Assembly (NCBI GenBank): GCA_006503475.1
Contig: RSEH01000087.1
Location: forward strand, 1-64,000
Length of the DNA: 64,000 nt
Direction of reading: 5' to 3'
Source of the DNA: Stentor roeselii
Lineage: Eukaryota; Ciliophora; Heterotrichea; Heterotrichida; Stentoridae
A model generated the notes under the pieces. That model saw nothing but the letters and a program-made list of their open reading frames with translations, was not told the origin of the DNA and did no database searches. This document shows positions 12,071-59,100 of the stretch, in pieces; the first letter of the stretch is position 1, and every line of letters begins with the position of its first letter. The translations under genes were made by a program, and so were the position numbers.

Positions 12071-13052
12071 ATGTCTAAAAAAATCCCTCCTCCGAAACTC
12101 AGCATCACTCCTCGTGAAGAAGTTAAAACTTTACCGTCACTTCAAAGGTCACGCTCTGGGAAATTGAGGATTAGTAGTCTTTCTGAACTTCAAGGAGAAG
12201 AAAAACTTGGACAGGGAAGTGCCGGGGTCGTCGAAAAGTGTCTTCATGTGCCTTCGAAAACGATTGTTGCTATCAAAAAGGTTCCGTTGTCGACTGACCC
12301 TCAGGTCAGAAATGCGATTATTCAGGAAGTTAATACTTTGAATTCTTGTAAGAACCAAAACGTGATTTATTCATTTGGAGCCATTGTTCAGAAGACTACT
12401 ATGAATATCATTATTGAATTTATGGATAAAGGCACTTTGGAAAGTGCTTTGAAGGTCTCTGGATGTCTTTCTGAAGATGTTATTGGACATATTGCTTTTC
12501 AGGTACTTACTGGATTGGATTATTTGCATGCGACTAAGAAAATTATTCATAGAGATATTAAACCTTCTAATTTGCTGCTTTCTTCTGAAGGGCTTGTCAA
12601 GATTTCTGACTTTGGCACTGCAGGGATAATGAGTCGTACAGACGCGACTAAAAGCACATTTGTAGGAACAATGATTTACATGTCGGTAAGAGTTAACTTA
12701 GTAGCCTGAGCGCTTTCTAGACGAAGGCTACCATTCAGACACAGACATCTGGAGTCTAGGTCTCACCCTTCTAGAATGTGCCATCGGAAGATTTCCCTAC
12801 CCAGATCCAGACTCCTCAGGAGTCATTCCAGTCCTAAATCTCTGGGACCTAATAAACCACATAACCGAGAAGCCATCACCATCCCCTCCAGCAGGATCAT
12901 CAGAAGAAATGCAAGATTTCTTAAAAATCTGTTTAGGAAAAACATCAGGAAGCAGAAGTTCAGCGAAAGCTCTTTTATCTCATCCATTTATCATCAAGAA
13001 TTCAAATCCAATAAGTTTCAGTTTGTGGCTTGAGTCTCTTCCTTCAAAATAG
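12071..13052 (+). CDS. MAP2K-like (STE7) protein kinase, two exons with a 19-nt intron
   Basis: Exons 12071-12685 and 12705-13052 give 320 residues. The first exon has the glycine loop LGQGSAGVV, VAIKK, HRDIKPSNLL, DFGTAG and GTMIYMS. Exon 2 resumes with PERFLDEGYHSDTDIWSLG, so splicing restores the conserved MSPE motif. It then runs to ALLSHPFIIK and a TAG stop. The intron, GTAAGAGTTAACTTAGTAG, is 19 nt, longer than the 15-nt introns elsewhere here. Using its first AG (16 nt) would put TAG in frame directly after MS. The Ser/Thr pair in SRTDATKST is the likely activation-loop target. The compact domain, SPE motif and basic N-terminal tail fit a MAP-kinase kinase, upstream of a MAPK. A MAP3K-like kinase lies at 47199 in this window, but no link between them is shown. 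Confidence 0.85.
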
Positions 13053-26817: not shown

Positions 26818-28299
26818 ATGTTGGGTAGACTGAGGAAGGGTCTTAAGAATTCTCTTGATGTTCAGATTGGGAAAAAATCTTGTAACTCTCTTGTAATATT
26901 TGATAAAGAACCTCCTAAATGGGCAGTTTCTGCTGAATCTCGTGAGGATCTTATGAAGAACAAGTCAGTTTTCACTTACCCGAAACGATTATATGAAAGA
27001 AGTTTACTTTTTAAGTTAAATGAAGATAGTAGCGTCTTCTCATTAGCTAGCAAGGCAGTTAACATCCTGAACAGTAAAAAGTTAATTTCAGCAGATATAC
27101 TTATTCCAAAGTCCATGAAAGATGAAAAAGTGATTAAATTGGTTAACACAGCAATTCTAAGCAACTATGAATTCTCCCTCAAGACACCAGAAGAGCCTTC
27201 AAAAGATAACCCTGAGCCGAAAAAGGAAGAAAAGACTTTACAGACACTTTTCTTGGAAAGAGGCATTTCAGCACCTGATGAGTTAGAACTGTCAATGGCC
27301 TCAGCTTACTGCAGTCTCTACGCTCGAGACTTGGCAAATACCCGCGGGTCAGAAGCGACTCCTGCCTTTATGGTGGAAAAGGCTCAGGAGGTGTTTCAAT
27401 CAGCTCCTGATAAGGTGTCTATTGAAGTAATTTCAGGAAATCAGTTGAAAGAAAATGGACTTCATTTGTTGTATGCTGTTGGAAAAGGCGCTATTTGTCC
27501 TCCTCATTTGGTGGTTTTGAAGTATACCGGAAATGATGTTAATGCACCTTATACTGCAATTGTGGGAAAAGGACTCACTTTTGATACTGGAGGACTTAAC
27601 CTTAAACCTACCAATAGCATTGAAGAGATGTATTTGGATAAAAGTGGCGCTTGTGCTGCTTTAGCTGCTTTTAGATGGGCTGTTGAAACTAATTTTCAGG
27701 TTAATTTGATTTGTACTTTGGCTTTGGCGGAAAATGCTATTGGAAGTAATAGCTATAAACCTTTGGATATTATTACTTCGCTTAAAGGAAAAACTGTTGA
27801 AATTGGAAATACTGATGCTGAGGGACGGTTATGTTTAGCAGACGCTCTGACCTACACTCAAACCCTTCACAAGCCAAGCAAAATAATCGACCTGGCAACA
27901 TTGACAGGAGCTTGCGTAGTAGCCTTAGGAGAAGAAACAGCAGGTGGCTTCGGAAGTCCAGATTTAGTTTCTAAGTTATCAAGAGCAGGAAGATTTTACC
28001 AAGAAGAAGTTTGGCACCTTCCAATAAACAAAGAGCACGAAAGGAGCATCAAAGGGAAAGTAGCTGATTTGAGTAACACTGGAAAGAACAGATACGGAGG
28101 CGCGTCGACAGCAGCGGCTTTTCTCAAACAGTTCATCGAAAAAGACGTTGAATGGGCGCATCTGGACATTGCAGGGCCAGCTATGAACAAATCTCAAAGA
28201 GGTCAGTTTTCACCTGGCGGGACTGGCTTCGGAGTTCAACTGTTGACAAGGTATTTGATTGAAGAAAACACTAAAAACAAGAAGAATCGGAATAAGTAG
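26818..28299 (+). CDS. M17 leucyl aminopeptidase
   Basis: 493 residues, the normal length for cytosolic M17 aminopeptidases. The C-terminal catalytic domain has the metal and active-site motifs: VGKGLTFDTGGLNLKP near 257, DKSGACAALA, and the family signature NTDAEGRLCLADAL near 335, followed by ATLTGACVVALG. The N-terminal domain (residues 1-170) is the less conserved macro-like domain. The enzyme removes N-terminal residues using two divalent metals in a hexamer and works in cytosolic peptide turnover. No targeting peptide is obvious. Its stop lies 70 bp before an interstitial telomeric repeat. Confidence 0.95.
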   Translation: MLGRLRKGLKNSLDVQIGKKSCNSLVIFDKEPPKWAVSAESREDLMKNKSVFTYPKRLYERSLLFKLNEDSSVFSLASKAVNILNSKKLISADILIPKSMKDEKVIKLVNTAILSNYEFSLKTPEEPSKDNPEPKKEEKTLQTLFLERGISAPDELELSMASAYCSLYARDLANTRGSEATPAFMVEKAQEVFQSAPDKVSIEVISGNQLKENGLHLLYAVGKGAICPPHLVVLKYTGNDVNAPYTAIVGKGLTFDTGGLNLKPTNSIEEMYLDKSGACAALAAFRWAVETNFQVNLICTLALAENAIGSNSYKPLDIITSLKGKTVEIGNTDAEGRLCLADALTYTQTLHKPSKIIDLATLTGACVVALGEETAGGFGSPDLVSKLSRAGRFYQEEVWHLPINKEHERSIKGKVADLSNTGKNRYGGASTAAAFLKQFIEKDVEWAHLDIAGPAMNKSQRGQFSPGGTGFGVQLLTRYLIEENTKNKKNRNK

Positions 28300-28369
28300 A
28301 TTATTTATGTTTAGGGTTTAAGAGTGAAGGTTTTTTGAGTTGGATTTGAAGTTGATGGAGTTATTGGAA

Positions 28370-28397
28370 GTTAGGGTGTTAGGGTGTTAGGGTGTTA
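28370..28397 (+). repeat. Interstitial telomeric repeat (TGTTAGGG, about 3.5 copies)
   Basis: Positions 28370-28397 read GTTAGGG followed by two full TGTTAGGG units and a partial TGTTA. This is the complement of CCCTAACA, the telomere unit reported for the heterotrichs Stentor and Blepharisma. It sits in open intergenic DNA between the aminopeptidase stop and the tRNA-like RNA cluster. Three and a half perfect octamers in an AT-rich spacer are unlikely by chance. It may mark a former or alternative chromosome end or a fusion point. Confidence 0.8.
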
Positions 28398-28438
28398 ATT
28401 CTTGATTTGGATTTGAGATTGTGATATGGTTTGAGTGA

Positions 28439-28446
28439 TATTTAAA
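28439..28446 (+). promoter_or_regulatory. TATA-like box of tRNA-like RNA copy 1
   Basis: TATTTAAA begins 30 nt before the first base of the 66-nt element at 28469. The other two intact copies have similar boxes at nearly the same distance. Confidence 0.5.
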
Positions 28447-28468
28447 GTTTAAGCATGAAAAATGTTAA

Positions 28469-28534
28469 TCTAGAGCGTAGGGTACAAATACGAACTGCAC
28501 CTCTGTATTATCGGGTTCAACTCCCGACTCTAGA
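28469..28534 (+). ncRNA. 66-nt tRNA-like RNA, copy 1
   Basis: Bases 1-7 (TCTAGAG) pair perfectly with bases 60-66 (CTCTAGA). The 3' half holds a canonical T-arm: stem TCGGG/CCCGA around the seven-base loop TTCAACT, which also makes a good pol III B-box (GGTTCAACTCC). Next to the 5' stem is a tiny hairpin GTA-GGG-TAC in the D-arm position. A middle stem AATAC/GTATT closes a 13-nt loop (GAACTGCACCTCT). C and then ATTTT follow the closing stem, giving a pol III terminator. The overall layout is acceptor stem, small D-like arm, large-loop middle arm and T-arm, but there is no seven-base anticodon loop, so it is not an ordinary tRNA. Two further intact copies with the same length follow. Confidence 0.75.
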
Positions 28535-28639
28535 CATTTTGGGATTATTTTTACTGGTTAATAGTTTCTGTTGTGATCTGATGGCTCACTGATGAATAAT
28601 GAAGGAGAAGAATCAATAAATATCGAATTTATCTTTATT

Positions 28640-28706
28640 TTTGGATTGGAAGGTGCAATTCATTTCAATATTTCCTTCATCTATCAGGTTCAAATCCGAC
28701 CCTAGA
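28640..28706 (+). pseudogene. Decayed tRNA-like RNA copy
   Basis: Aligns along its whole length with the intact copies: GGAAGGTGCAATTCA matches the TGTAGGGTACAAATA block, and TCAGGTTCAAATCCGA matches the T-arm. It keeps the 3' stem strand CCCTAGA but has lost the 5' strand and the T-stem pairing, so it should not fold like the intact members. Confidence 0.6.
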
Positions 28707-28839
28707 GCTTTCATTCAGATTTAAACCCAACACAATTATATCTTTTCTGCATCACAATTAATTTAACTGAAAACTTAAACTAATGTTTAAGCTAGCTTTT
28801 CTCAATAAAAATACTAATACTCGAGTCAAAAAATATTAC

Positions 28840-28905
28840 TCTATCCTAAAATATCCAAAAAATGAATCTCCTTCCTTTATTTCAGCTTCAAATCCTAATT
28901 TTCAA
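28840..28905 (+). pseudogene. Decayed tRNA-like RNA copy
   Basis: GAATCTCCTTCCTTTATTTC matches the middle-loop region of copy 3, and the T-arm survives only as TCAGCTTCAAATCCTAA. The closing stem is lost. Its 3' flank (TTTCTGTTGAGATCTGATGG near 28932) closely repeats the flank behind copy 1 (TTTCTGTTGTGATCTGATGG near 28564), which shows that the two copies arose by duplication of a larger segment. Confidence 0.5.
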
Positions 28906-28979
28906 CATTTTGCGATATTTTGAAAACAAAAATATTTCTGTTGAGATCTGATGGATTCTATTGATAAATTCAAGAAACC

Positions 28980-29045
28980 AAAAGTATAAAAAAACATCAA
29001 ATCTAGCTTTCCTCTATAATATAAGCTTCATATCCAGTTTAATAT
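28980..29045 (+). pseudogene. Probable strongly decayed tRNA-like RNA copy
   Basis: CCTCTATAATATAAGCTTCA matches the middle region and T-loop of copy 1 with several changes. It lies behind the preceding decayed copy, as the copy at 28640 lies behind copy 1, so it is probably the other half of the duplicated segment. Weak on its own. Confidence 0.35.
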
Positions 29046-29159
29046 TTCTTCTTCTAAGATTTACTCCCTAAAACTCCAGATTCTAAGAAGTAAAAAAAAC
29101 TCCAAGTCATCATCTCAACCCCAAAGCCACACAAACATTTCTTCATGCAAATCGCTTAC

Positions 29160-29168
29160 TATTTAATA
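29160..29168 (+). promoter_or_regulatory. TATA-like box of tRNA-like RNA copy 2
   Basis: TATTTAATA begins 30 nt upstream of the element at 29190, the same spacing as in copy 1. An ATGCAAAT octamer lies near 29144, which may be coincidence. Confidence 0.5.
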
Positions 29169-29189
29169 TCAAAATCCAAGTACAGTTAA

Positions 29190-29255
29190 TCTAGGGTGTA
29201 GGGTACAAATAATGAATATCACATCTTTATATCGGGTTCAACTCCCGACCCTAGA
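29190..29255 (+). ncRNA. 66-nt tRNA-like RNA, copy 2
   Basis: Same length and arms as copy 1. Its closing stem is TCTAGGG/CCCTAGA: pair 6 is G-C where copies 1 and 3 have A-T, a compensatory change. The T-arm is identical to copy 1. The D-position hairpin is four pairs, TGTA-GGG-TACA. The middle stem ATAA/TTAT closes a 14-nt loop (TGAATATCACATCT). C and five T residues follow at 29256-29261. Confidence 0.78.
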
Positions 29256-29325
29256 CTTTTTAATAAACCCAAAAATCTAATCAACTCCAAAACGCCTAAA
29301 AACTTAAAATCAATTTTTCAATCAC

Positions 29326-29334
29326 TATATAAAA
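29326..29334 (+). promoter_or_regulatory. TATA-like box of tRNA-like RNA copy 3
   Basis: TATATAAAA begins 33 nt upstream of the element at 29359. It could instead serve the C2-domain gene that starts at 29449, but that is 115 bp away. Confidence 0.45.
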
Positions 29335-29358
29335 CCTAAACTTCAAAAAATAAATCAA

Positions 29359-29424
29359 TCTAGAGTGTACGGTACAAATAACGATTCTCCCTCCTTTATT
29401 TCGGGTTCAACTCCCGACTCTAGA
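29359..29424 (+). ncRNA. 66-nt tRNA-like RNA, copy 3
   Basis: Same 66-nt layout: closing stem TCTAGAG/CTCTAGA, D-position hairpin TGTA-CGG-TACA, middle stem AATAA/TTATT around a 14-nt loop (CGATTCTCCCTCCT), and the identical T-arm. CCTTTT follows. It ends 24 bp before the ATG of the next protein gene. A translated frame runs through it, but the fold and the conservation with copies 1 and 2 show the region is RNA-coding, not protein. Confidence 0.75.
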
Positions 29425-29448
29425 CCTTTTGTGAATCCGTTAATTAAA

Positions 29449-30294
29449 ATGAAATCAACCCCAAACCAAAACTTTTCAATCACAATCTGCCAAGCTTCAA
29501 TCCTGACACAGATCCCAGGCCTGATACTAAGTCCTCAAGTTCAGATAGACTACAGTTCTGTTCAAGTAAGAACTCGTTCTTTAAGCGATTTTCTTCCAGA
29601 GTTCAACGAAAAGTTCAATTTTGAAATGATGAAAGGCGAAATAGTTGTAACTCTGCTGAACAACCCGAAATTCTTTAAAGAGTCAGTCATCGGCTGCTGT
29701 TCGATTCCAGTTCGAAGGGTCTCAGGATGGTTCAACTTGACAAAGGAAGGAAAAAAAGTAGGCTCTATAAGGGTTATTGTTCAGGAAGACTCGGAAAATC
29801 AGTCACTTTTAATCGATTATCAAAAAAAACTCGCTGAAGCTAAAAAAATTCAAGAGCAGGTCAAAGAGTTGAAAAAAAAATATATGAATAAGGCTCAGGC
29901 CGTTAAAGAAAGGTCTTTGACTTGCAGAAGTAAACATTTAGAAGATATTGAAAATAATGATATTTGTAAAAATTCACTTTCAGTCAAACATGAAATGAAA
30001 GAATTGATCAGCAAAAAGGCCTTGATTAAAATGCAGGAGGAAAATTTGGAGATTGAAAAAGAAAGAATTCAAATCGCTTGGAATGAAATTGAAAATGAAA
30101 AGAAAGAAGTACAGGCTGCTATTTTAAAGATTAAGGATGGCTTGCAGGAAAGTCAAGCTGCCAAATGCAGGAATAATATTTTGAATCGAATTAGCGAGTA
30201 TACAAAAAATAGAGCTGCTACTCCGAAATCAGCTAAAAGTCATTTGTTTAGGAATTCAGAGTTTTCTTTAACACAGCCGAGGTTGGATGATTAA
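29449..30294 (+). CDS. C2-like domain plus coiled-coil protein
   Basis: The frame is open from 29365, but its first 28 codons overlap tRNA-like copy 3, so I place the start at the ATG at 29449 (281 residues). Residues 8-120 look like a C2 beta-sandwich (NFSITICQASILTQIPG, LLNNPKFFKESVIGCCSIPV, GWFNLTKEGKKVGSIRV). The Asp residues of Ca2+-binding C2 loops are mostly missing, so binding of protein or lipid without Ca2+ is more likely. A coiled coil fills 125-250 (KKLAEAKKIQEQVKELKKKY and following). It is convergent with the RNA-ligase-like gene. Confidence 0.7.
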   Translation: MKSTPNQNFSITICQASILTQIPGLILSPQVQIDYSSVQVRTRSLSDFLPEFNEKFNFEMMKGEIVVTLLNNPKFFKESVIGCCSIPVRRVSGWFNLTKEGKKVGSIRVIVQEDSENQSLLIDYQKKLAEAKKIQEQVKELKKKYMNKAQAVKERSLTCRSKHLEDIENNDICKNSLSVKHEMKELISKKALIKMQEENLEIEKERIQIAWNEIENEKKEVQAAILKIKDGLQESQAAKCRNNILNRISEYTKNRAATPKSAKSHLFRNSEFSLTQPRLDD

Positions 30295-56169: not shown

Positions 56170-59100
56170 TTAAATAATGACGCAAGCACAAGACTTTTCC
56201 CTGACAGTTTCAACTTTTTGATTGCGATTTAAGTTGCTATCAATAATTAACTGATTTTCCAACTTGGCATGTTCCAGTTTGAGTCTTCTAATTTCTTCCT
56301 TCTGAGACTTGACAATAGCTTTAAGGTCTCCTTCAGGGACTTCGCTTTGGTTGAGGACACTTTGATTTAAAGAGAGTCCAGCCGCGATGCTTTGATTTCC
56401 TGACCTGAGTTCATTGTGGATGGTGTAGTTAAGTAAACCGTGAGATCGCTCAATGATTGACTTGTTCCCACCAACGGAGTTCATCCTCAGGTCGTAGCCT
56501 GAAAGCATTTCTTCAGCGGCTTCCATTTGAGTGAAGCTTCTCATTGCTTTTAATGACTCTCCTCGGTTTTTCGCTCTTGACTTTAACTGGTCGATGCCTC
56601 TCATTTTACGGTCCTCGCTGATGTCGCCGAAGACGGAAATTACGAGCATGTTAGTCAGGATCTTGTCGATTAAACTCTCGCTTATTAAGAAGTTGTGAGT
56701 CATTTTATAGTGAAAGGCTGGAGAGGTTGATTGGTCTAGACATGCTAGTGTTCGACATACTCCGGAATTTAGTAAGTTGTACTCACAGTAAACGTTTGTT
56801 GAGTAATTCGCTGGAATACCCTGGGCGTCTTTTATTGATAGGTGAAAATCGATGCTTCGGCTCAGCAGGTCTCTGAGACTTTCAGGCTCGTCTTTTAAGT
56901 TCTCTACTTCAGGACTGATAGAAACTTTGAGAAAACCTTGATGCTGTCCATGATCATCAATGATAGGAAAAGCATCTTCGTCAACAGTCATATAATAAAA
57001 AAGTACCTCAAGAAATACATAAGCATTTCCAATGAGCTGATAAGTTCTCTGGCTCTGGTCAATCTGATCATAAAAAGGATCATATCCCAAGTCAATATCT
57101 TCCGGATTGACTCCATAAGCAAGTTGATTGCAAACTTCTCTCATATCAACAAGCCGTTCTTCCAGCTTGTCAACAGCCCAAGTGATAGGAAAGTCTTCTT
57201 CAATATCAGGATAAATCAATTTAACTCTAACATTAGTGCTTGCAAGTCCCGGTTTCGCTCCTTCTCTATAAAGCTCAGGCTGAAAAAAGACATTTTTTCC
57301 AAGTAAAACAGCTCGTTCATTAGCTTCATTGATCTCTGAAACCGCTTTACTCAAAATTTCTGTCAATCTCTTCAATGCAAGTCTATTATCTTCATACTGT
57401 TCAAGCATTTTCTGCTTATTCAAGATATCCTTCTCAATCTCCTGATGCTTCTTCATCAACTCCTTTTCCCTCTCCTGCATCAAAGCGGCAGCTGAGCCTT
57501 TTTCATTAAGTAATTTCTGAATCTGCATTTTTTCTTCTTCCATCTTAGCCCTAGCTTCTTCCCATTCCGCCTGAAACTTAGCCTTAATTTCCTGTTCCTT
57601 TCTAACAAGTTCTTCATTTTTTTCTCCTAAAATTCCTTTGACCTGTTCAGAGTTCGCTTCTTTAACAGCGAACTCCCAGTCAAAAGTTTTATTAGAAAGT
57701 TCATCAGGGTCGATAAACAAGAAATAATTATGATTCCCAAATCTCAGCCTGTCTTGATTTTCCAGCAAAACAGGCTGGTCGATGATTTTTCCATTTCTCA
57801 TCGTTTTCAAGTTGCTATCTGTGGAAGGGATGAGCAGGCAATTTTCGTTTTCAAGCCTGACAATGCAGTGGTCTTGCCCGATCCCCAGGCCGTCGATGGC
57901 CATGTCGGGTTGCGAGTTTGGATTTTTCTTGCCGATGCGATTGACGCCTGCTTTGAAGCTGTACTTCAGGTACCCGCTCAGAAGAGGGTCTTCGTTTAAG
58001 TTGCTGATAAACGGCCCGGTGGGCCGTTTGATGTTTTCGACTATCATCGGAATGACTGTCATTCTTACACCGTGTGAACGAAGCTTTTGCTGCCAGTTGG
58101 AATCGGTTTCTTCTTTTGCTTTACGTAAAGCCTCGATTTCTCGCTCGTAGGCTAAACGGGCTTCTTCGGTCATGCTGTCGTTTGGCCGGCTTAGCTTGTT
58201 TTCTAGCATCGCTTTTAATTTTTCGTTTTCTTCTTTTAGCTCGCGGATTAACTTTTCTTGGGCTGTTTCGTTTACTATTGCTTGGTTTTTTATGCTTTTT
58301 ACAGCGTCGGCGTATCTTAGGGTGCTGAGAGATTCTTCGAAGTTGAATAGAGCAGGACTGATAGCAGCAATCATGGTAGTCTTGCTATTCCCTCCCAACG
58401 CATTCTGTAAAATTCTCGTTAATTTGCTTTCACGATAAGGAATAACCTCATTTTTTCCCAACAGCCCAGCAGATTTCTTAGCAAGAGTAGTGATAACCTT
58501 TCCTAAAGTCGAGAGTGACTTATTGATACTACTACCTTCTTGAAGCCGTTCACCAGTGGCTCCAGTTTTACCAGCTCTTTCCGACCCAGCAAGGTCAACC
58601 AGGTTAATATTGCTTTGTTTACGGTTTAGCGGTTTACCCGTGGACTGTTCATAGAAAATCTGAGTGAAGGAAATAGTAAGAATAGTATGTGCACGTGAAG
58701 AGGTCGCATTCATGTTGGTAGCTGCCACAGTTCTATGCTTATTTCCCAGTTCCAGGACTCTATTGATCTCTTCATAGCTCTGACAGTTTTCCTTCGTGAG
58801 GTTCTCAACGAAAACGCCTTGGGTCTTGTCCTGACGAACTTTCAAGCCGCCCTGGACCCTATTCGAAGGATGGACGAGCAGGTCATGGACCTGCTCATTG
58901 TAAATCTCAAGCATGCTCGCATTCACGATGTACTCAATGTGAGGGTCAGTCCTTTCTTCGATTTGTTGAAAGATCTCTTCGCAAGTTATGGGAATAATGC
59001 CTTTGTTCCCTCTGTAGCCAACCATTGAGTAACTCTTGCCTGAGCCTGTTTGACCATAAGCGAAAAGACAACAATGGTAACCTTCCCAGGCATTGTTCAG

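What the first reader, a model, noticed from the sequence alone, without database searches (positions are those of the whole stretch)
28469..29430. New family of 66-nt tRNA-like RNAs with pol III style promoters
Three copies share the same length, an identical T-arm that doubles as a B-box, a 7-bp closing stem, a 3-4 bp mini D-arm, a TATA-like box 30-33 nt upstream and an oligo-T end. Copy 2 changes A-T to G-C in stem pair 6, keeping pairing. The middle arm has a 13-14 nt loop of variable sequence instead of a 7-nt anticodon loop, so they are not tRNAs of any class I know. They could be a regulatory RNA family, an RNA mimicking the tRNA top half, or tRNA-derived elements under selection.
Basis: partly seen in the sequence, partly recalled or inferred. 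Interest (0 to 1): 0.92.

Follow-up and report, generated by a model that had tools for sequence, protein, structure and literature searches.

The report
Mini tRNA-like RNA gene cluster
A stretch of probable ciliate DNA carries three intact and some decayed copies of a small RNA gene whose product would look like the upper half of a transfer RNA but has no convincing anticodon, so it is probably a non-coding tRNA mimic rather than a translator of codons.

Summary
Three 67-nt copies (28469-28535, 29190-29256, 29359-29425) align without gaps. Their two end blocks are 44-45/47 identical, the middle 6-13/20. Each has a TATA-like box starting at -30, -30 or -33 and a T4-5 run 0-1 nt after the last base. 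The 7-bp closing stem varies at one pair only, and that is compensated. RNAalifold finds acceptor stem, mini D-hairpin and T-arm, no middle arm. Default ARAGORN and Rfam find no tRNA. The copies sit in a tandem array with two decayed members and probably a third.

Best reading: stand-alone pol III genes for a tRNA-mimicking RNA that keeps the acceptor/T-arm top half and a GG in the D-loop and has dropped the decoding half. In plan it resembles vertebrate mascRNA/menRNA (PMC11693755, first part read), but as an independent gene with a large variable middle loop. The host genome is not held and no relative was found in the collections searched, so expression, processing and function are inferred; the D and middle arms are only weakly supported.

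The parts
28469..28535 (+). copy 1 of the tRNA-like RNA (67 nt incl. 3' C): acceptor 28469-28475/28528-28534, D-hairpin within 28476-28486, middle arm 28487-28509, T-arm 28511-28527
29190..29256 (+). copy 2 (compensated pair 6, A-T to G-C)
29359..29425 (+). copy 3; ends 23 nt before the ATG (29449) of the C2-domain gene
28439..28446 (+). TATA-like box of copy 1 (TATTTAAA, starts at -30)
29160..29167 (+). TATA-like box of copy 2 (TATTTAAT, starts at -30)
29326..29333 (+). TATA-like box of copy 3 (TATATAAA, starts at -33)
28537..28540 (+). oligo-T (T4), presumed pol III terminator, copy 1
29257..29261 (+). oligo-T (T5), presumed terminator, copy 2
29427..29430 (+). oligo-T (T4), presumed terminator, copy 3
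28639..28708 (+). decayed copy: B-box-like T-arm and 3' acceptor strand recognisable, 5' strand and D region decayed
   Evidence: (16.6 bits, E 0.088, no better than reverse strands of intact copies)
28840..28906 (+). decayed copy, closest to copy 3 in the middle region; stems broken
   Evidence: (full-length matrix score 28.1, best site outside the array 4.3; its 3' part alone ranks only fifth)
29013..29079 (+). probable, strongly decayed copy in register with the array period
   Evidence: rank 6, score 3.8, not significant alone; its unit beats all shuffles against 1 of the 5 other units, that of the 28639 copy (82 against shuffle maximum 53)

Best explanation
The region is a small tandem array of RNA polymerase III genes. 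Each intact gene makes a 66-67 nt RNA: TBP/TFIIIB would bind the TATA-like box at about -30, TFIIIC the B-box in the T-arm (the A-box is degenerate), and pol III would stop at the T4-5 run directly after the 3' end. The RNA would fold into a 7-bp acceptor stem stacked on a canonical T-arm, with a tiny D-hairpin whose GG can dock into the T-loop (UUCAACU) as in the tRNA elbow. The anticodon arm is replaced by a weak stem with a large variable loop. It is thus a tRNA mimic that can be seen by proteins reading the tRNA top half (RNase P, RNase Z, CCA enzyme, La, elongation factor, synthetase-like or transport proteins), but it does not decode. Most likely it acts as a stable decoy, scaffold or regulator for such a protein. 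Shown: sequence, copy pattern, where the constraint lies, promoter and terminator spacing, partial covariation. Inferred: transcription, elbow docking, processing, binding partner, function. The confidence is for 'pol III-made non-decoding tRNA mimic under selection', not for a particular partner.
For: Between intact copies the end blocks (positions 1-22 and 43-67) are 44-45/47 identical and the middle 6-13/20 (Fisher p 1.9e-7, 1.4e-6, 0.0057; block limits set after seeing the alignment). Copy 1 against copies 2 and 3 is at shuffled background from -41 to -80 and in the 40 nt downstream, so recency alone does not explain the identical ends. TATA-like start within a 13-nt span: 4-6% by chance; TTTT at offset 0-1: 2.6-3.4% by chance; all three copies have both. 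Acceptor and T-arm pairs are kept in all three copies, with one compensated change. RNAalifold returns acceptor + 4-bp D-hairpin (fourth pair missing in copy 1) + T-arm. Mean pairing probability: acceptor 0.96-0.97, T-arm 0.83-0.84. Rfam at E up to 10 over the array gives no tRNA match, only a T-arm match to tmRNA at E 0.32; ARAGORN at default threshold 0 genes. The region plan 7/11/24/17/7 resembles mascRNA 7/11/15/17/7 (mascRNA numbers from PMC11693755).
Against: No expression data and no homologue outside this array. Only 3 intact sequences: 18 of the 20 pairs counted carry no covariation support, and its shuffle control is weak (53/500); the covariation term of RNAalifold is only -0.11. 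In single-sequence folds the D-hairpin has mean probability 0.03, 0.22, 0.34 and the middle stem 0.06, 0.25, 0.35; the drawn cloverleaf is 1.6-2.7 kcal/mol above the minimum. D-hairpins as long arise in 29%, 4% and 8% of shuffles. Whole-RNA folding z-scores are only -1.2 to -1.8. The A-box fits its consensus poorly (consensus recalled). A C discriminator is disfavoured for CCA addition by the human enzyme (abstract of PMC4477674). The TATA pattern was chosen after the sequences were seen.
Confidence: 0.55

Rival explanations
1. DNA-level element: B-boxes that recruit TFIIIC (like extra-TFIIIC sites or tDNA insulators) or mark a chromosome break/telomere-addition site between two genes; any RNA is incidental.
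For: The T-arm with the B-box is identical in the three copies. The array fills a gap of about 1.15 kb between two genes. A tract of three to four TGTTAGGG-type telomere-like repeats lies at 28370-28398; Blepharisma has many internal telomere-addition sites with repeat CCCTAACA (passages of PMC9942806).
Against: Does not explain the 7-bp closing stem kept with a compensated change, nor T4-5 runs right after all three 3' ends. The telomere-like tract is beside copy 1 only.
Confidence: 0.15
2. Relics or members of a tRNA-derived SINE or other selfish pol III element; what is conserved is the promoter and the tRNA-like head.
For: Type-2-promoter-like layout; several copies, at least two of them decayed.
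Against: Copies lie in one direct array with steps of 173, 198, 350 and 169 nt, as expected from tandem duplication rather than dispersed retroposition. No tail and no target-site duplication noticed by eye. No convincing copy elsewhere in the 64 kb window.
Confidence: 0.12
3. Aberrant but decoding tRNAs with reduced D-arms: in copies 1, 2, 3 ARAGORN's metazoan-mitochondrial model places anticodons GCA, CAC and CTC.
For: That relaxed model calls all three copies, ends within 1 nt of those given here; its mammalian variant calls copies 1 and 3; the ordinary model with lowered threshold calls copy 3 as Glu.
Against: These modes are not specific here: 19, 9 and 199 calls in this window. The drawn anticodon stems contain mismatches and two of three calls have no D-stem. 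The three would have different anticodons on the same body. Default ARAGORN and Rfam find no tRNA.
Confidence: 0.1
4. Dead, decaying tRNA-like pseudogenes; the resemblance of the three is due to recent duplication only.
For: Neighbouring array members are decayed; copies 2 and 3 still share downstream flank (1 of 500 shuffles as good), so those two did separate rather recently.
Against: Identity is concentrated in two end blocks around a diverged middle, which recent duplication or contiguous gene conversion would not give; all three keep acceptor and T-arm pairs, TATA-like box and T-run.
Confidence: 0.08

Closest known systems
mascRNA / menRNA (tRNA-like RNAs cut from vertebrate MALAT1 and MEN-beta)
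   Same: 7-bp acceptor stem, 17-nt T-arm, D stem-loop of 10-11 nt (in mascRNA with two G just before the 3' D strand that dock into the T-loop), no linker nucleotides, non-decoding middle arm (mascRNA/menRNA facts from the first of two parts of PMC11693755).
   Different: Stand-alone units with their own TATA-like box and oligo-T instead of a segment of a long RNA; middle arm about 24 nt with a weak stem and a 13-14-nt loop instead of 15-17 nt with a longer stem and compact loop; no such Rfam match. Common descent is not suggested.
Nuclear tRNA genes (type 2 pol III promoters)
   Same: Acceptor and T-arm geometry, B-box, oligo-T; a TATA box near -30 as in plant and S. pombe tRNA genes (passages of PMC7279448).
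   Different: No normal D-arm, no convincing 7-nt anticodon loop, 67 nt, C at the discriminator, not found by tRNA models at default thresholds.
Other short pol III type-2 ncRNAs (vault RNA, nc886, 4.5S RNAs, SINE heads)
   Same: Pol III-style layout with upstream TATA-like element (abstract and passages of PMC7279448 for 4.5S RNAs and SINEs; nc886 from search listings only).
   Different: Those are not closed by a 7-bp acceptor stem on a T-arm at the 3' end (recalled).
Reduced mitochondrial tRNAs of nematodes and mites
   Same: Strongly reduced tRNAs that remain CCA substrates (section 19 of PMC4477674).
   Different: Here the gene lies in nuclear-type DNA with B-box and terminator-like T-run, and no convincing anticodon arm.

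Membership tests
transfer RNA | recognised by tRNA models | tested here: not met
   ARAGORN at default threshold 0 genes; Rfam gathering threshold 0 matches and no tRNA match at E up to 10; only relaxed modes call them, with 9 to 199 or more calls in the window
transfer RNA | 7-nt anticodon loop on a sound stem | tested here: not met
   drawn stems carry mismatches, loops not in the same columns
transfer RNA | T-arm and 7-bp acceptor | tested here: met
transfer RNA | aminoacylation, CCA end | not testable with these tools
   needs RNA
mascRNA/menRNA | cloverleaf plan with minimal D-arm, GG in D-loop, no linkers, non-decoding middle arm | tested here: inconclusive
   plan fits but D- and middle arms are weak in single folds and the D-hairpin is not beyond chance by itself
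mascRNA/menRNA | match to the known family's model | tested here: not met
   no such match among the 5 Rfam matches at E up to 10 over the array; that Rfam holds a mascRNA family is recalled
mascRNA/menRNA | cut out of a long RNA by RNase P and RNase Z | not testable with these tools
   gene anatomy suggests an independent unit instead
pol III type 2 gene | B-box | tested here: met
pol III type 2 gene | A-box | tested here: inconclusive
   a conserved GTANGGTACAAATA block fits the consensus poorly (consensus recalled, judged by eye)
pol III type 2 gene | oligo-T terminator just after the gene | tested here: met
   3 of 3 copies, chance 2.6-3.4% each
pol III type 2 gene | transcription by pol III | not testable with these tools
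   no RNA data
tRNA-derived SINE | dispersed copies with tails and target-site duplications | tested here: inconclusive
   no convincing copy outside the array in this window; genome not held

The most novel reading that the evidence does not exclude
A ciliate RNA family in which a fixed tRNA-like 'handle' (acceptor + T-arm + GG D-hairpin) presents a copy-specific loop of 13-14 nt in place of the anticodon: a set of pol III-made adaptors or guides that use the tRNA handling machinery to position different loop sequences, rather than one decoy RNA.
Probability: 0.12. Interest if true: 0.88.

Novelty: new variant of a known kind. Interest (0 to 1): 0.6.

Why it matters
If transcribed, this would be a free-standing gene family for a tRNA mimic, something otherwise known to me mainly as a by-product of two vertebrate long RNAs (recalled). 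It would show that cells far from vertebrates also use the tRNA top half without decoding, and it gives a compact natural substrate to test what RNase P, RNase Z, the CCA enzyme and elbow-binding proteins really need. The decayed neighbours give a built-in control for what is under selection.

Tried and rejected
Normal tRNA, with or without intron: ARAGORN at default threshold finds none. Lowering the threshold gives 199 and 213 calls over the window (one of them copy 3 as Glu, seen in the scan of the array stretch), the mitochondrial mode 19 at its default and 1883 when lowered, the mammalian mitochondrial mode 9, so these are not evidence.

Rfam: no match at gathering thresholds in the window; at E up to 10 over 28300-29560 five weak matches: partial tmRNA on the T-arm E 0.32, snR33 3.8, SNORD51 5.7, SCARNA7 7.3 twice, all far below their gathering scores.

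Relatives elsewhere: the combined D/T pattern gave 2 viral contigs. The match in L001 looks by eye like the encoded-CCA end of a tRNA or tmRNA gene; ARAGORN tRNAs elsewhere on L001, none at the match, and none on L002. A second pattern gave 16 contigs. A covariance search of all 18 loci gave 12 matches up to E 10. The best, L005:275-341 at E 2.8e-5, pairs the closing stem and carries the D block, but has no T-arm in the alignment, lies inside a 337-aa viral reading frame and rests largely on the stretch used as search pattern; I reject it. Next come seven 73-nt matches (L003, L007, L009, L010, L013, L014, L018; 18.7-19 bits); of these only L003 was read, and it is nearly the same sequence as L005. 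The other four (L012, L001, L015, L006) are weaker. No match in genome contigs, nor in plasmids for the whole array. Two neighbour proteins found no relative in viral contigs.

Covariance search of the window: the decayed copies at 28857 and 28639 (E 0.066, 0.088) score no better than the reverse strands of the intact copies (E 0.068, 0.13, 2), so they rest on the ungapped matrix scan, the fourth B-box and unit-to-unit alignments, not on this model. In the matrix scan of the 3' part alone, 28840 ranks fifth and 28642 twelfth, among unrelated sites.

Array: 9 of 15 pairs of units beat all 200 base shuffles; 6 (u1-u2, u1-u4, u2-u3, u3-u4, u4-u5, u4-u6) did not. Unit borders were set by me.

Tiny-intron tally to name the organism was not decisive: one convincing 19-nt intron in a kinase gene (judged by eye against the recalled kinase motif) and one possible 15-nt intron. 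The heterotrich assignment is an inference.

Papers: the Stentor genome paper (PMC5659724) is not held. No paper on such RNAs in ciliates was seen in the listings of searches (1 of 1 listed; 6 of 6; 17 of 17; 15 of 50; 12 of 12; 12 of 2,278; 15 of 6,738); only titles and starts of abstracts were seen there, so this is weak evidence of absence.

Full report
What was given. I re-read the region and tested each statement.

Setting. The window is AT-rich (GC 0.24-0.43 in 2-kb steps) with long open frames under the standard stop codons. The array lies between a leucyl-aminopeptidase gene (26818-28299, Pfam Peptidase_M17) and a C2-domain gene with an ATG at 29449, both on the + strand. Gene content, very short candidate introns (not decisive) and a telomere-like TGTTAGGG tract suggest a heterotrich ciliate of the Stentor type; this is an inference. 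Blepharisma, another heterotrich, has CCCTAACA telomere repeats (passages of PMC9942806). No whole genome is held for the window.

The three copies. They are 67 nt each including a 3' C and align without gaps. Positions 1-22 are 20/22 identical in each pair, positions 43-67 are 24, 25 and 24 of 25 identical, positions 23-42 only 6, 8 and 13 of 20 (Fisher p 1.9e-7, 1.4e-6 and 0.0057; the block limits were set after seeing the alignment). The 40 nt directly upstream show weak residual similarity in each pair (17, 6 and 28 of 500 shuffles as good). From -41 to -80 and in the 40 nt downstream, copy 1 is at shuffled background against copies 2 and 3, while copies 2 and 3 still share downstream sequence (1 of 500 shuffles as good). 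Two conserved blocks around a diverged centre argue for selection on the blocks; recent duplication or a contiguous conversion tract would not spare the centre.

Signals. TATA-like boxes start at -30, -30 and -33; a run of T4, T5 and T4 starts 1, 0 and 1 nt after the 3' C. By chance a TATA-like start in a 13-nt span has probability 0.04 (window) to 0.06 (this gap), and TTTT at offset 0-1 has 0.034 (window) to 0.026 (this gap). The TATA pattern was set after seeing the sequences, so that figure is optimistic. The B-box GGTTCAANTCC occurs 4 times in 64 kb, each time in this array, 0.13 expected. Plant and S. pombe tRNA genes carry a TATA box at about -30/-24 (passages of PMC7279448).

Fold. Acceptor and T-arm pairs hold in the three copies; acceptor pair 6 changes on both sides in copy 2. 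The middle stem shows one A-U/C-G exchange; copies 2 and 3 need a 1-nt register shift against copy 1, and without it only 73% of its cells pair. Closing stems of 6, 4 and 5 bp (G-T allowed) arise in 0.4%, 11% and 0.5% of shuffles; D-hairpins of 3, 4 and 4 bp in 29%, 4% and 8%. The copies are related, so these are not independent. RNAalifold yields acceptor, a 4-bp D-hairpin with a 3-nt loop (fourth pair missing in copy 1), and T-arm, leaving the middle open; its covariation term is small (-0.11). Against the cloverleaf, single-sequence folds favour other pairings for the D and middle regions, and the cloverleaf lies 1.6-2.7 kcal/mol above the minimum. The top half is therefore well supported, the rest only suggested.

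The array. A matrix from the three copies, scored at every position of both strands, ranks the copies first (by construction), then 28840 (28.1), while the best site outside the array scores 4.3. A further decayed copy at 28639-28708 keeps the B-box and the 3' acceptor strand. The site at 29013 is in register and its unit aligns with that of the 28639 copy (82 against shuffle maximum 53) but not beyond shuffles with the other four; it is weak by itself. Successive T-arm sites at 28511, 28684, 28882, 29232 and 29401 give steps of 173, 198, 350 and 169. So the locus probably grew by tandem duplication; three units stayed intact and two or three decayed.

What it is not. ARAGORN at default threshold and Rfam find no tRNA. 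The relaxed metazoan-mitochondrial mode draws D-armless or D-poor tRNAs with anticodons GCA, CAC and CTC on the three copies, but makes 19 calls in the window and needs mismatched stems. I do not accept them as decoding tRNAs.

What it works like. mascRNA and menRNA keep a 7-bp acceptor, a 17-nt T-arm and a 10-11-nt D stem-loop; in mascRNA two G next to the 3' D strand dock into the T-loop. They lack the linker nucleotides of tRNA and have a non-decoding middle arm (first of two parts of PMC11693755). The present RNA can be divided 7/11/24/17/7 in the same way, with GG invariant at positions 13-14 directly before the 3' D strand. It differs in having its own promoter-like and terminator-like signals and a large variable middle loop. 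I read it as a convergent, stand-alone tRNA mimic. A partner among proteins that bind the tRNA top half is the natural guess; CCA addition is open, since a C at the discriminator is disfavoured by the human enzyme (abstract of PMC4477674).

Limits. No RNA data, no orthologue, three sequences. Searches of viral contigs, prokaryote genomes and plasmids gave no accepted relative, as expected for nuclear DNA of a protist; they say nothing on how widespread the family is. The one striking hit, L005 (E 2.8e-5), lies in a viral reading frame and lacks the T-arm.

Verdict. A real and unusual feature, probably a small cluster of pol III genes for a non-decoding tRNA-like RNA; a new variant of a known kind, with function unproven.

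Noticed in passing
window 28370-28398: Interstitial telomere-like tract, three to four TGTTAGGG-type repeats (a permutation of CCCTAACA, the Blepharisma telomere repeat, passages of PMC9942806), about 70 nt upstream of copy 1; outside it the script found only two single motif hits, at 58317 and 18160.
   Followed up: partly
window 28332-28427: 23-nt direct repeats at 28332 and 28399 (83% alike, 67 nt apart; two weaker members at 28428 and 28633) around the telomere-like tract; the stretch 28339-28359 matches, in reverse, the T-arm region of two decayed copies (I1 and I2), possibly an inverted decayed copy or chance.
   Followed up: no
window 28565-28584 and 28935-28954: Spacer repeat of 20 nt (95% identical, 370 nt apart) that ties the units of two decayed copies together.
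   Followed up: partly
window 12686-12704: A 19-nt GT-AG candidate intron in a protein-kinase gene whose removal gives the usual kinase sequence (motif recalled, judged by eye); points to very small introns.
   Followed up: partly
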